A stretch of 22,495 bases of DNA from IMG/VR virus record IMGVR_UViG_3300032006_000096, positions 1-22,495 of that record. One strand, 5' to 3'. The position numbers were made by a program, and so were the translations under genes. This DNA is from a virus. The notes beneath the pieces are model-generated. The model worked only from the letters and a program-made list of their open reading frames with translations, was not told the DNA's origin and did no database searches. Below are positions 17,737-21,945 of the stretch, piece by piece. Every line of letters begins with the position of its first letter. Position 1 is the first letter of the stretch.

Positions 17737-17982
17737 ATGAACAAAACATACAACACACAAATCAAGGAAGCCAGAGAAGCACTGATTGCCGAATCGGGAT
17801 TAACCAAGGAAGAACAAGAAACACTTAGAACTCTGATATACGCATGCAGAGACTGGAAACGTTCCAAAGTAATGAAGTGGGCAGAGGAAGAAGGCTTAAT
17901 GACTGATAGAATTCATTTTGCATTTACTTCTCAATCTATTATTTCCGGTCGTATTCGTGCGGCACTAGTACCAGCTAGTTAA
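17737..17982 (+). CDS. Plus-strand moron-like gene, unknown function
   Basis: 81 residues from the ATG at 17737; AGGGAGA seven bases upstream fixes this start over the earlier ATGs at 17698 and 17701. The protein is helical and charged (TQIKEAREALIAESGLTKEE, then CRDWKRSKVMKWAEEEGLM) and ends FTSQSIISGRIRAALVPAS. Its middle could be a helix-turn-helix-like or winged domain that binds DNA, but no signature proves it. It is the only complete gene here against the late block, with its own promoter region and a strong terminator 15 bases after the stop, the defining pattern of a moron. It may be expressed when late genes are off. Confidence 0.72.
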   Translation: MNKTYNTQIKEAREALIAESGLTKEEQETLRTLIYACRDWKRSKVMKWAEEEGLMTDRIHFAFTSQSIISGRIRAALVPAS

Positions 17983-18031: not shown

Positions 18032-18265
18032 CTAAAAAATCATGTTAGGTAACGATTCAACGTGGGTGGCTTTTACAATTTTCCCCTTCATCTTTTCCAC
18101 TACAAATTGTGCCACATCATAATCAGGATCAGGGTTAGATGGAACAGGCCGCCACGGGTGAATAATCATATACATTTCACAGGCATCTAATAAAAACTTA
18201 TCCCGTGATTTCCATACCCCGTCAGTGATCCGTGCCGTTCTCCCATCAACTTCAATTTCTACCAT
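18032..18265 (-). CDS. Small conserved phage protein after MuF
   Basis: 77 residues. Its ATG follows the MuF stop with no gap (TAAATG), so it is translated with it. It begins with a beta pair (VEIEVDGRTARITDGVW), then a helix, then NPDPDYDVAQFVVEKMKGKI, a 'PDPD...A...vE...GgkIv' pattern that I recall from small phage proteins beside head genes (memory, not searched). An immunity role to the MuF toxin-like domain is possible by position, as immunity genes often follow their toxins, but the conserved pattern argues more for a general phage protein. Composition is AT-rich like the end of the MuF gene. Confidence 0.65.
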   Translation of the reverse strand: MVEIEVDGRTARITDGVWKSRDKFLLDACEMYMIIHPWRPVPSNPDPDYDVAQFVVEKMKGKIVKATHVESLPNMIF

Positions 18266-20257
18266 TTAATAATCTTTCACTAATCTAATTTCCCGTATAG
18301 CCTCGGCTTGTTTCTGTTTTGCACGTATAGCTTTGTCCAGAAAATCTGAAGGTGGCCCACTAATCCCAAAAGTATCGGTAGACTTTAGCGTGGGGTCTTT
18401 CACAAACTTTATGTCTTTATTAAGACGTAAAGCCCATTTCGATGTAGTGTTTGTATATTTTCTTTTAATTACTCTTTCATAGATAAAATCAAAAAATTCT
18501 GGGCTTTCCTTTGCAAAAGCTAAAGGATCGGTATACATCTTTTGAATTCCCATTGTCACTACTTCTGTGCCAATATTCCACCCGTCCCGATCTGACCAGA
18601 CACGACTAGAATCCTCAAGATCAAAAGATGAATATCTTATATTATTTTGAACTACTCTATCCCCACCAAAAGACCCTACGGAGTTATAAACTTTTGAAGC
18701 ATACGCCCCTAAATTCTCGCTATCATAGGCAAATTCATCTGCTCTATAACGGTTACTTTTCATAATCTCCCGCAAGGATTTTAATTTATCCCCTTTTGTT
18801 ACAATATTTCTGAATCTCAGGGCTTCGGCCATGAGTTCAGGGGTAGCAAATTCTAAGGTATGGGAGAGTTCATGTACTATTGTTGCACTGGCATCCCGTC
18901 CTACACGCCCATTCCCCTGAAAAAAGATATATTCTCCCGCGTTATCCTTATCATAAGCCGCCCAAGCCCTGCCGTTTCCGTTAGGTCTATCTTTAACAAC
19001 TTTAATTATTCGTTTCACTTTAACGGGTACCGCTTTAATCTCATCAACGGTGCCCGCTAACTCTGTTGTATAAAAAGAATCATCCACCAATTTTTGCCAT
19101 GCTGTTGATCCCAATTTCCATTGTTTTTTCTGGGCAGCATTCATGGTTCTGCCAATAACCAGTTCTACACTGGAAATATCTGACTCGTTATAAATAAATT
19201 TTTCTAAAATATCTTCTGCTACTCCCTCTAATGTTTCTGTTTGTTTTGCACCTAGTTTTTTTATCTTTTTCTTTAACTGATTTTGTTCTTTTAGTAACGC
19301 AACCATTTCTTTTTTTTGTGCTTCTGGTAAACGAAAAACTCGTTTTGGTTCATAAAACGTGTACTTATTTCTTAACTCTATAAGTCTCCCTTGAATCTCA
19401 TGGGATCTTTGCATTGCTTCACCCTGTGCTATCGCAGCTTTCTGTCGAACAAGTGTTAACTTGGCTGCTATCTTTTCACCTTCCTCATCCGCATACTTTA
19501 AAATTGCCTTCCGCGCATCCGATCCCTTGAGCAGTTCCCCATCTGCATTCACCGCCATGCGTGCCATGGTGGAGATTGGGGCACCTGTAGCAGCCACCGG
19601 GGGTGGCGTGAGTGTCATGCCGCCCATCCCAGGCACCGGAGCCACTCCACACCGGCAGTTGGGATGGGTAGTCGGGCCATCAATCTTGCCAATGCTTTTA
19701 ACGTTTGTATCAAATTTTTCTTTCAGTAACACTTGCTGGCCGTCCATGCGTTGACAAATGCCGCACGCTCCAAAGGGCGTAGTCATCCATTCCTTTTTGG
19801 CATCGCCCCCTAACACCCCTTTTTTCTGAGCCTGGAACCATGACTGCTGTGCCCCGGCAGACAAGGCATCTATTGTTTCTGTGCGGGCAATCGTGATCCC
19901 CCGTCTACGGATCATTTTCTTTTTTAATTTGATCCCGGCTTTGGCTTTGGCGGCTGGAGATAATGCCGGGTTTAACCCCCGCACATATTTTTTTAACGCA
20001 GCAGCCTGGGGGCGGTTTAACCCCACCATATTTTTTATTTGTTTTGCCGCTTCACGGGGGGGAATTTGATCCCGGATCATGTCTCTGATGAAATTGCGGA
20101 TCGCAATTTCTGTTTCAGTATTAATAACCGTGACTCGTTTGGCCGCATACTTCGCCGCCCATTTTTCAGCTTGCTTATTCTTGGCATCAAAGCCAAACCG
20201 CAGTGATTTAACTTTTACCGTATCGGTTGAGTTGTTTGGCACCGAAGTGGCCCCCAC
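18266..20257 (-). CDS. MuF minor head protein with C-terminal zincin (HExxH) domain
   Basis: 663 residues from a GTG at 20257, which has no ribosome site; the true N-terminus is probably the 95-residue frame before it. Residues about 15-210 are the MuF domain: FDAKNKQAEKWAAKY, RTETIDAL, FGACGICQRMDG (C165, C168) and THPNCRC (H198, C201, C203). After a Pro-rich linker and a long coiled coil (about 265-345) comes a zinc peptidase-like domain: ATIVHELSHTLEF with H462-E463-L-S-H466, and a possible third ligand E565 in GTEVVTMG, followed by YTDPLAFAKESPEFFDF. MuF proteins join the portal and head interior and in some temperate phages carry polymorphic toxin domains delivered with DNA. From about residue 260 base composition falls sharply in GC, suggesting that the C-terminal part was acquired separately. 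Confidence 0.85.
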   Translation of the reverse strand: MGATSVPNNSTDTVKVKSLRFGFDAKNKQAEKWAAKYAAKRVTVINTETEIAIRNFIRDMIRDQIPPREAAKQIKNMVGLNRPQAAALKKYVRGLNPALSPAAKAKAGIKLKKKMIRRRGITIARTETIDALSAGAQQSWFQAQKKGVLGGDAKKEWMTTPFGACGICQRMDGQQVLLKEKFDTNVKSIGKIDGPTTHPNCRCGVAPVPGMGGMTLTPPPVAATGAPISTMARMAVNADGELLKGSDARKAILKYADEEGEKIAAKLTLVRQKAAIAQGEAMQRSHEIQGRLIELRNKYTFYEPKRVFRLPEAQKKEMVALLKEQNQLKKKIKKLGAKQTETLEGVAEDILEKFIYNESDISSVELVIGRTMNAAQKKQWKLGSTAWQKLVDDSFYTTELAGTVDEIKAVPVKVKRIIKVVKDRPNGNGRAWAAYDKDNAGEYIFFQGNGRVGRDASATIVHELSHTLEFATPELMAEALRFRNIVTKGDKLKSLREIMKSNRYRADEFAYDSENLGAYASKVYNSVGSFGGDRVVQNNIRYSSFDLEDSSRVWSDRDGWNIGTEVVTMGIQKMYTDPLAFAKESPEFFDFIYERVIKRKYTNTTSKWALRLNKDIKFVKDPTLKSTDTFGISGPPSDFLDKAIRAKQKQAEAIREIRLVKDY

Positions 20258-20495
20258 GATTCAAAGTCTGTTTGATGCTGGTATTGACTGGTGCCATGGC
20301 TTCACGCATCCGCGTGGGCGTGATCACACTCCTTAGCGCGGCTTCTTCATCCCCCTTGGCTAAAGCTAGTGTGAGTTTCTCCAGATCAACCGCATTTTCT
20401 AAGTGTGCTGCGGCCCGAAGAAACCGGGCTTCTATCGTGGGTTCAATTTTATCCGCCATTTTTTCAATGGCTTTCAGATCATCACTCCTACTCAT
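20208..20495 (-). CDS. MuF N-terminal segment in a separate frame
   Basis: 95 residues: KAIEKMADKIEPTIEARFL, then DLEKLTLALAKGDEEAAL and a TLNRGGHFGAKQLNRYGK end. This is the all-helical opening that normally precedes the FD-x-x-N-x-x-A-x-x-WA segment in MuF proteins, which here lies in the next gene, one frame over, with a 50-base overlap. A one-base skip in the AAAA run (20213-20216) would join K94 to V16 of the next gene and read GKVKSLRFGFDAKN, giving a 742-residue protein. It may be a real split gene, programmed frameshift or sequence error. Its ATG overlaps the portal stop by eight bases. Confidence 0.7.
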   Translation of the reverse strand: MSRSDDLKAIEKMADKIEPTIEARFLRAAAHLENAVDLEKLTLALAKGDEEAALRSVITPTRMREAMAPVNTSIKQTLNRGGHFGAKQLNRYGKS

Positions 20496-21945
20496 CAGTT
20501 ACTTCTTCTTCTTTATTTTCATCTACTTCAATGACTTCCTCTGCCGGGGGCGGGGCTTGTTCCGGTTCACGGCTAATTTCCTTCTTTTCTTCTTCATCCG
20601 TGACCCCATACCGTGCCCAGCCACCTTCCGTTAAAATGTTCCAGAAAGTTTTGTAGGAAATCTCCCCGGCTTGAAGGGTAGCCAGGGCAGTTTGGATTTC
20701 CTGCGGGGCCGCTTTGACCTGCAAAAAATCTTTATTGAGTTCTACCCTCACAGGAATGTCCTGGGGGGAAGTTTCCAAGCCTTGCCACCAGGCCATTAAC
20801 TGAAGGGCCGAGGTTAAACCTTGTTCCATGGCCTGGGCCATCGTCCGAAGCGTGGCATGTTCGCCCGCGTGCCGCGCTAACACCGCCGTAGCCGTTTCCT
20901 GTGCCACCGTAGGCTGTTCTTCTAACAGCTTGGCACCTAGCGTAGCCATCTGGTGCTGCTTCGCTAACAACGCCTTTTCTAAGGCACCCATACCCGCCCC
21001 GGAAAACTCCACCATGCCCGCCTTGCCGTCTTTGTCAAGAATCCACACGGTGGATGGCCCGATCTGGAGTGCATCCACATCATCCCCACTGCCCTTCATG
21101 CCAGAGACATAGGGCGTAGGCAGTGCAACTAAATGTAAGCCCTGTTCATGATCACAGGTGTTCCGCCAATGGGCTAAATTCAGTTCTGCTAAATCCAGCA
21201 ACGGCGGATCTTTTAATTCAGGAGTGGTATAGGCTGGGCCAAGAAACACAAACGGAATAAAGGGCAACGGTTCCCCACGCCGCAGGGGGGTAATCTCCGG
21301 GCCATACAGTTCCAGTTCTCCTCCGCCTGGTGAACGCCGCCACCGCTGTTGCGTGTACCGTAATTGGTTCCCGTCCAGATGCAGCCGCATTTCCCGGTAC
21401 TGTTCCAGCGTGTCATATTTAAACCGATCTTTTTCATTCACCACACGCGGCTGTTCCTGCACTACCAGCAGGGTTAAAATCTCATCCCCGTCCAGGGTAG
21501 TTGTATCCCAATTCACAATATTTTCAGCCGTATAACTCACAAAGTAGGGCCGCTTTTCCAACAGTTCTGAATCTGACATTTCTACCAAAATGCCCTGGCG
21601 GGCCATCAGTAACACTTCTTCACTACAGGACAACGCAAACTGTTCTATAGGAATATTGGTGAGGGTCACATCCTGTAACCAGGGTTCCAACGCACGCGGC
21701 ACATCAAAGCGTGGCGTTTTTTGAAAAATGCCGCCGGTCAGCCCACTAACCGTACGCCGCACCGCGTTATAAAAATTTCCCCGATTTAAATAATCGTACT
21801 GGGCCTGGGGTGTAGCGGCGGGGAGTTGTGGTGTGTACGCGGTTCCTGCCGCAATCACTTTTTCCCGGCCCCCGTAAGTATCCCGCATTTTTTTCCAGAT
21901 CGGTTTGAACGCGGTGTAATCATCCCGTGGCGTATTGACTGGCAT
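20488..21945 (-). CDS. Portal protein (DUF4055 type)
   Basis: 485 residues. The opening YTAFKPIWKKMRDTYGGREKV, AAGTAYTPQLP, then RRTVSGLTGGIFQKTP is the pattern of DUF4055 phage portals, and the middle YTAENIVNWD is the conserved 'Y..e.iiNWr' segment; LAHWRNTCDHEQGLHLVALPTPYVSG follows the known core. The C-terminus is a very acidic tail (residues about 445-485). The protein forms the dodecameric ring for DNA packaging and exit. It lies 20 bases after the terminase gene, the usual order, and the ATG is preceded by GGAAGGGAA. Confidence 0.92.
   Translation of the reverse strand: MPVNTPRDDYTAFKPIWKKMRDTYGGREKVIAAGTAYTPQLPAATPQAQYDYLNRGNFYNAVRRTVSGLTGGIFQKTPRFDVPRALEPWLQDVTLTNIPIEQFALSCSEEVLLMARQGILVEMSDSELLEKRPYFVSYTAENIVNWDTTTLDGDEILTLLVVQEQPRVVNEKDRFKYDTLEQYREMRLHLDGNQLRYTQQRWRRSPGGGELELYGPEITPLRRGEPLPFIPFVFLGPAYTTPELKDPPLLDLAELNLAHWRNTCDHEQGLHLVALPTPYVSGMKGSGDDVDALQIGPSTVWILDKDGKAGMVEFSGAGMGALEKALLAKQHQMATLGAKLLEEQPTVAQETATAVLARHAGEHATLRTMAQAMEQGLTSALQLMAWWQGLETSPQDIPVRVELNKDFLQVKAAPQEIQTALATLQAGEISYKTFWNILTEGGWARYGVTDEEEKKEISREPEQAPPPAEEVIEVDENKEEEVTDE

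What the first reader, a model, noticed from the sequence alone, without database searches (positions are those of the whole stretch)
18266..19480. MuF head protein carries an HExxH zincin domain in a separately acquired, AT-rich module
Seen: HELSH at residues 462-466 (18860-18874), possible third ligand E565, downstream YTDPLAFAKESPEFFDF, after a normal MuF domain. GC by hand count: 57% in 19501-19560 but 25% in 19261-19320 and 28% in 18421-18480, versus 58% in the portal (21001-21060). The shift near 19480 falls at the end of the MuF domain. Known: MuF proteins of temperate phages carry polymorphic toxin domains. Inference: a peptidase effector delivered with the DNA, or a head-maturation peptidase.
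Basis: partly seen in the sequence, partly recalled or inferred. Interest (0 to 1): 0.72.

Follow-up and report, generated by a model that had tools for sequence, protein, structure and literature searches.

The report
Swappable phage protease with dedicated partner
A phage head protein carries a swappable zinc-protease domain that travels between phages with its own small partner gene, much like a toxin with its antidote; the same pairing reaches phage P1, where it could be tested directly.

Summary
The MuF minor head protein (18266-20257, minus strand) ends in an AT-rich HExxH domain. H462, E463, H466 and E565 are invariant in 48 diverse homologues, so it is a real metallopeptidase family (PHROG 33618, function unknown). 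It is related to the peptidase domain of P1 DdrB, an internal head protein.

The module is exchanged. MuF is 98% identical to L003, yet the protease is 39% identical to L003 and 71% to L132, whose MuF is only 58% identical. The next gene (18032-18265, 77 aa) follows the protease (49% vs 75%), not MuF. At the same locus, relatives carry protease+ART, protease+Zeta+ART, or ART without protease. The partner is present in every zincin-bearing case that can be checked and absent from L133, which lacks the protease. A search with the partner alone found only protease-linked copies (7/7 contigs).

Partners often end in [IV]-[YF] (40 of 62, background 0.9%); P1 Hxr does too.

Best reading: a virion-carried effector protease plus a neutralising partner. 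Activity, packaging, toxicity and inhibition are inferred; AlphaFold did not resolve docking. A new variant of MuF polymorphic toxins/polyvalent proteins.

The parts
20208..20495 (-). ORF1, 95 aa: N-terminal part of the MuF head protein
   Evidence: matches phrog_3517 positions 9-90; ORF2 continues at 96; kept in all seven related loci
20251..20258 (-). CGTGGGGG: candidate frameshift site joining ORF1 and ORF2 (+1 or -2)
   Evidence: CGN GGG GGN in ORF1 of all seven loci; not tested experimentally
18266..20257 (-). ORF2, 663 aa: MuF domain plus C-terminal zincin
19643..19930 (-). MuF domain (residues 110-205)
   Evidence: PF04233, E 7.2e-8
19471..19525 (-). junction: end of the conserved MuF part; GC and homology break
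   Evidence: 98% identity to L003 before it, about 39% in the zincin after it; GC 0.515 to 0.38
18443..19210 (-). zincin domain (about residues 350-605)
   Evidence: phrog_33618; alignment A9; AlphaFold pTM 0.80
18860..18874 (-). HELSH, residues 462-466
   Evidence: invariant H, E, H in 48 homologues
18563..18565 (-). E565, probable third zinc ligand
   Evidence: invariant in 48 homologues
18032..18265 (-). partner gene, 77 aa, starts right after the MuF stop codon; ends in -NMIF
   Evidence: co-inherited with the zincin; family members follow most zincins

Best explanation
The C-terminal domain of this MuF minor head protein is an active zinc metallopeptidase that acts as an effector. It is held in the head through MuF, probably made in small amounts by a frameshift, and enters the cell with the DNA, where it cuts a host or defence protein. 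The 77-aa protein encoded directly downstream is its dedicated neutralising partner (inhibitor or immunity protein), protecting the producing cell until the protease is packaged. Protease and partner move between phages as one cassette that replaces the C-terminal end of MuF. Shown here: the invariant active-site residues, homology to the P1 DdrB peptidase, cassette exchange, and specific linkage of the partner to the protease. Inferred: catalysis, packaging, delivery, toxicity, inhibition.
For: H462/E463/H466/E565 invariant in 48 homologues. MuF is closest to L003 (98%) but zincin and partner are closest to L132 (71% and 75%, against 39% and 49% to L003). At the same locus: MuF-zincin, MuF-zincin-ART (L130), MuF-zincin-Zeta-ART (L011), MuF-ART without zincin (L133). 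The zincin partner is present with the zincin in window, L003, L009, L130, L132 and absent in L133; L130 has a second small ORF resembling those after the ARTs of L011 and L133. 54 of 90 distinct zincin ORFs are followed directly by a detectable partner; an independent search with the partner found 7 contigs, all zincin-bearing. Tandem zincin-partner pairs occur in one phage (L053, L081). The family includes the end of P1 DdrB; DdrB is in the virion (PMC9024508) and Dar proteins are ejected with the DNA (PMC12810830). Small downstream ORFs mark MuF toxins (89.4% vs 25.5% for short MuF; PMC5576092).
Against: No activity, toxicity or delivery was found reported for any member. P1 DdrB is reported to be cleaved before packaging, read as self-processing (PMC5512222), which favours a processing role. 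P1 ddrB and hxr both score non-essential in a CRISPRi screen (PMC10695390), so loss of Hxr is not obviously lethal. Some zincin genes have no recognisable partner, and two tandem zincins can share one. AlphaFold of the read-through fusion did not place the partner on the protease with confidence (pTM 0.63). Whether the phage is temperate is unknown.
Confidence: 0.5

Rival explanations
1. Processing protease: the zincin cleaves its own chain or other internal head proteins during assembly or after entry, freeing itself or downstream effector domains from the MuF anchor. The partner is a timed inhibitor or folding chaperone.
For: P1 DdrB is reported as processed to about 76 kDa before packaging, and Iyer et al. 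propose autoproteolysis by this domain (PMC5512222). In L011 and L130 the zincin lies between MuF and ART/Zeta domains, as a releasing protease would.
Against: In the window and most relatives the zincin is the last domain, so little lies downstream to release. L133 carries an ART on MuF without any zincin. A housekeeping step would not be expected to diversify and swap against a nearly constant MuF.
Confidence: 0.32
2. The partner is not an inhibitor but a loading factor or chaperone that brings the zincin-bearing head protein into the procapsid; the conserved C-terminal end binds a docking pocket on the zincin or the head.
For: Obligate-looking linkage, small size, conserved C-terminal residues. 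In P1, Dar proteins are incorporated in an ordered way (PMC12810830).
Against: L133 has the same MuF type but no such gene, so the head itself does not need it. MuF alone is expected to suffice for head incorporation (general knowledge of the family).
Confidence: 0.12
3. The domain is a catalytically dead structural relic and the AT-rich stretch is neutral drift.
For: No activity demonstrated; low-GC composition; Foldseek matches weak.
Against: Active-site residues are invariant over 48 divergent sequences; ORFs are intact; partner linkage is maintained.
Confidence: 0.04

Closest known systems
MuF polymorphic toxins of temperate phages (Jamet et al. 2017, PMC5576092)
   Same: MuF domain in the packaging module, variable exchanged C-terminal domain, small ORF immediately downstream
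   Different: this domain is an unnamed zincin family; the downstream ORFs form one recognisable family with a conserved C-terminal [IV]-[YF] and are shown to move with the protease; lifestyle of this phage unknown; MuF is split by a conserved overlap
P1 DdrB C-terminal metallopeptidase followed by hxr (polyvalent proteins, Iyer et al. 2017, PMC5512222)
   Same: homologous HExxH...E domain at the C-terminus of an internal head protein; short gene directly downstream ending in -QIVY
   Different: DdrB has a ParB-like N-terminal part instead of MuF; Hxr shows no significant body similarity to the 77-aa family; hxr is annotated as a possible Xre-like repressor and is not mentioned in Iyer et al.
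Planktothrix phage PaV-LD ORF080R/ORF081R + ORF082R
   Same: same zincin family and same partner family
   Different: not a MuF fusion; shares a Cys-rich N-terminal segment with neighbouring ART-like proteins; two zincins, one partner
Anthrax-lethal-factor-like and other solved zincins
   Same: fold class: top Foldseek hits of the model are zincins
   Different: best E-value 0.018, TM-score about 0.33; no sequence match in the PDB; phage context

Membership tests
MuF polymorphic toxins | MuF domain in the N-terminal part, encoded in the packaging module | tested here: met
   PF04233 E 7.2e-8, next to portal and terminase
MuF polymorphic toxins | C-terminal domain exchanged among otherwise similar MuF proteins | tested here: met
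   98% vs 39% identity and discordant nearest relatives; other domains at the same locus
MuF polymorphic toxins | small (<150 aa) candidate immunity ORF immediately downstream | tested here: met
   77-aa ORF starting right after the stop codon, co-inherited with the domain
MuF polymorphic toxins | encoded by a temperate phage | not tested
   22.5-kb virus record; only the late structural region was examined
MuF polymorphic toxins | toxic activity neutralised by the downstream protein | not testable with these tools
   needs experiment
Zincin (gluzincin-like) metallopeptidases | HExxH plus a distal Glu ligand | tested here: met
   invariant in 48 homologues
Zincin (gluzincin-like) metallopeptidases | zincin fold | tested here: inconclusive
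   model pTM 0.80; zincins rank first in Foldseek but no hit below E 0.001
Zincin (gluzincin-like) metallopeptidases | zinc-dependent proteolysis | not testable with these tools
   needs experiment
DdrB-type peptidase of polyvalent proteins | sequence homology to the P1 DdrB C-terminal domain | tested here: met
   homologue L022 matches P1-like plasmids at 33% identity, E about 5e-8; the direct hit of the window protein to phrog_2299 (DdrB-sized, 995 positions) is weak, E 0.01
DdrB-type peptidase of polyvalent proteins | several unrelated effector domains in one chain | tested here: inconclusive
   met in relatives L011 and L130; the window protein has only MuF and zincin
HK97/P1-Pro type prohead proteases | sequence match to a prohead protease family in the C-terminal part | tested here: not met
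   no Pfam or NCBIfam match there; PHROG hits named 'head maturation protease' cover only the MuF region

The most novel reading that the evidence does not exclude
The partner belongs to a widespread, unnamed class of phage-encoded metallopeptidase inhibitors that work by pushing a conserved C-terminal [Ile/Val]-[Tyr/Phe] end into the active site of the neighbouring zincin. The bodies of these proteins diverge beyond recognition while the last two residues persist, and the class includes P1 Hxr, now called a possible repressor.
Probability: 0.25. Interest if true: 0.75.

Novelty: new variant of a known kind. Interest (0 to 1): 0.6.

Why it matters
Zincin-like peptidases are the commonest domain in phage and plasmid polyvalent proteins (PMC5512222), but what they do, and how the producing cell tolerates them, is unknown. 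This work ties one family to a dedicated partner gene through co-inheritance and presence/absence at one locus, and points to the pair ddrB-hxr in P1, where deletion, complementation and virion proteomics are routine. That turns a general guess into an experiment: does Hxr, or its last two residues, restrain the DdrB peptidase? If so, it would also give a new mode of protease inhibition and an annotation for many orphan small phage genes.

Tried and rejected
Zincin motif by chance: rejected, catalytic residues are invariant in a divergent family. Sequencing error as the cause of the ORF1/ORF2 frame break: rejected, the same overlap is found in related contigs from several metagenomes. Independent re-initiation at the GTG next to the G-run: disfavoured, since L132 lacks a start codon there, but not excluded. 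Scarcity in bacterial genomes as a sign of a lytic-only family: dropped; the genome scan used one short pattern and found one hit, while Streptococcus prophages and P1-like plasmids carry members. PDB sequence search with the profile gave only unrelated hits. A first fusion alignment was misaligned and discarded. AlphaFold of zincin + TAA-readthrough + partner gave a confident partner body (pLDDT above 90 over most of it) but no confident placement and a low-confidence tail, so it neither supports nor refutes docking. The C-terminal end is not universal: GBK1, BboS-125, BpsS-36, Vibrio, Pantoea and Leptolyngbya cases lack it. The tail counts are not corrected for shared ancestry. No homology of Hxr or the Streptococcus/Lactococcus partners to the 77-aa family could be shown. 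One of the 12 peptidase clades of Iyer et al. may be this family; their alignment files could not be read here.

Full report
What is there. The window is a 22.5-kb virus record that holds late genes of a tailed phage, mostly on the minus strand: terminase C-terminus, portal (DUF4055), MuF minor head protein, scaffold, major capsid protein, tape measure and others. The finding concerns the MuF gene, 18266-20257. GC drops from 0.515 in the MuF part to 0.38 in the rest, and third-position GC from 0.53 to 0.29.

The peptidase family. No Pfam or NCBIfam model and no PDB sequence convincingly matches the C-terminal part, but phrog_33618 (unknown function) does, and it matches all 48 homologues collected. 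Profile searches of viral contigs gave 27 and then 76 loci, the second a capped list from 198 confirmed stretches. In the 48-sequence alignment H462, E463, H466, T487, Y519 and E565 are invariant. AlphaFold gives pTM 0.80 with high confidence over the HExxH helix. Foldseek ranks zincins first (anthrax lethal factor, astacins, Certhrax, MMPs) but with E-values of 0.018 or worse. The fold is therefore supported, not proven. One homologue (L022) matches P1-like plasmids at 33% identity (E about 5e-8), and the P1 DdrB sequence shows HELGH and ATEVFSMAL near its end. This is the domain Iyer et al. identified as a metallopeptidase in polyvalent proteins (PMC5512222).

Where the domain sits. It is nearly always the last domain of a head-associated protein: MuF proteins of many types, a portal-MuF fusion (L030), MuF with helix-turn-helix repeats (L032), a ddrB-ParB fusion (L023), and PaV-LD-type virion proteins. 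The exceptions are informative: L011 reads MuF-zincin-Zeta toxin-ART and L130 reads MuF-zincin-ART.

The module is exchanged, with its partner. Seven related MuF loci were compared. Window and L003 MuF parts are 98% identical, but their zincins are 39% identical. Window and L132 MuF parts are 58% identical, but their zincins are 71% identical. The next gene, 77 aa, shows the zincin's pattern: 49% to L003, 75% to L132. L003 and L009 are also close in zincin (69%) and partner (77%) although their MuF parts are 65% identical. The C-terminal part has GC of 0.38-0.41 in window, L003, L009, L130 and L132, whatever the MuF GC (0.51 to 0.63). So protease and partner move as one cassette. L133 carries an ART but no zincin, and there the 77-aa gene is missing; only another small ORF, resembling those after the ARTs of L011 and L130, lies before the scaffold gene. 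L130 carries both domains and both small genes, with the ART and its small gene apparently inserted between zincin and zincin partner. L011 cannot be scored because its contig ends soon after the ART-linked gene.

Specificity of the partner. 54 of 90 distinct zincin ORFs are followed directly by a member of the partner family detectable by HMM, and several of the rest by a similar-sized gene too divergent to detect. A search that started from the partner found 7 contigs; all are contigs already found through their zincin (compared). The partner has no convincing Pfam or PHROG family.

The conserved end. Of 62 distinct small ORFs chosen by position alone, 40 end in [IV]-[YF], against 25 of 2853 other small ORFs (0.9%). 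In ten partners with down to 24% identity the final Val-Tyr is invariant. The same kind of end occurs on downstream genes whose bodies show no significant similarity: P1 Hxr (QIVY), Streptococcus Javan514 (NAIY), Lactococcus 62503 (NIIF), Flavobacterium pippi8-1 (KEIY, borderline similarity). It is not universal, and the counts are not corrected for relatedness. A C-terminal dipeptide kept while the body changes suggests docking of the C-terminus into a pocket; the protease active site is an obvious candidate, but this is inference. AlphaFold on a read-through fusion did not resolve it.

How it most likely works. MuF places the protein in the head (known for the family). The protease is probably carried into the cell with the DNA, as Dar proteins are in P1 (PMC12810830), and acts there, while the partner blocks it in the producing cell. 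The main rival is a processing protease with a timed inhibitor, suggested by reported processing of DdrB (PMC5512222). Against that, the zincin is usually terminal and L133 does without it. P1 ddrB and hxr are both dispensable in a CRISPRi screen (PMC10695390), which limits how harmful an unrestrained DdrB can be under those conditions.

Split MuF gene. The N-terminal 95 residues lie in ORF1 (20208-20495), and ORF2 continues in the +1 frame. phrog_3517 runs through both. The overlap is kept in all seven loci, with ORF1 reading CGN GGG GGN at the same place. GGG is the commonest glycine codon in these genes (36%), so the codon argument alone is weak (about 0.006 for five lineages). Conservation of the overlap and the lack of a start codon there in L132 favour a programmed frameshift, which would keep the amount of MuF-protease low.

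Verdict. Observation confirmed. Interpretation partly supported: a real, exchanged metallopeptidase module, with delivery and toxicity unproven. The added finding is the dedicated partner. It is a new variant of a known kind.

Noticed in passing
window 20208-20495 and 18266-20257, site 20251-20258: MuF is split into two overlapping ORFs in all seven related loci at CGN GGG GGN; looks like a programmed +1 (or -2) frameshift in a head protein gene.
   Followed up: partly
window 17737-17982 (+): Opposite-strand small gene (TerB_C-like, E 3e-6 for the longer ORF) between the partner gene and the scaffold gene, with an upstream segment nearly repeated before two opposite-strand small genes in L004; a moron-like accessory island.
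   Followed up: partly
L011:3864-7349, L130:3995-6733, L133:932-3148: MuF proteins at the same locus carrying Zeta toxin and/or ART domains, each ART followed by a small ORF of another kind (MVDKER... / ...QPxxGV), a second candidate partner family.
   Followed up: partly
L047, L053, L081: Tandem arrays of zincin genes in phage contigs from one metagenome, several with their own partner gene; one member carries an N-terminal GNWRHKGRKGQRGGS-type motif that may be a head-targeting signal.
   Followed up: no
L115:4248-4553 (P1 hxr): P1 hxr, annotated as a possible Xre-like repressor, sits directly after ddrB and ends in QIVY; it may instead be the DdrB partner.
   Followed up: partly
L002:2605-10669 (Planktothrix phage PaV-LD): Cluster of proteins sharing a Cys-rich segment (KxQCVKxTxYNCG..CIN) with ART-like or zincin C-termini; looks like an effector battery.
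   Followed up: no
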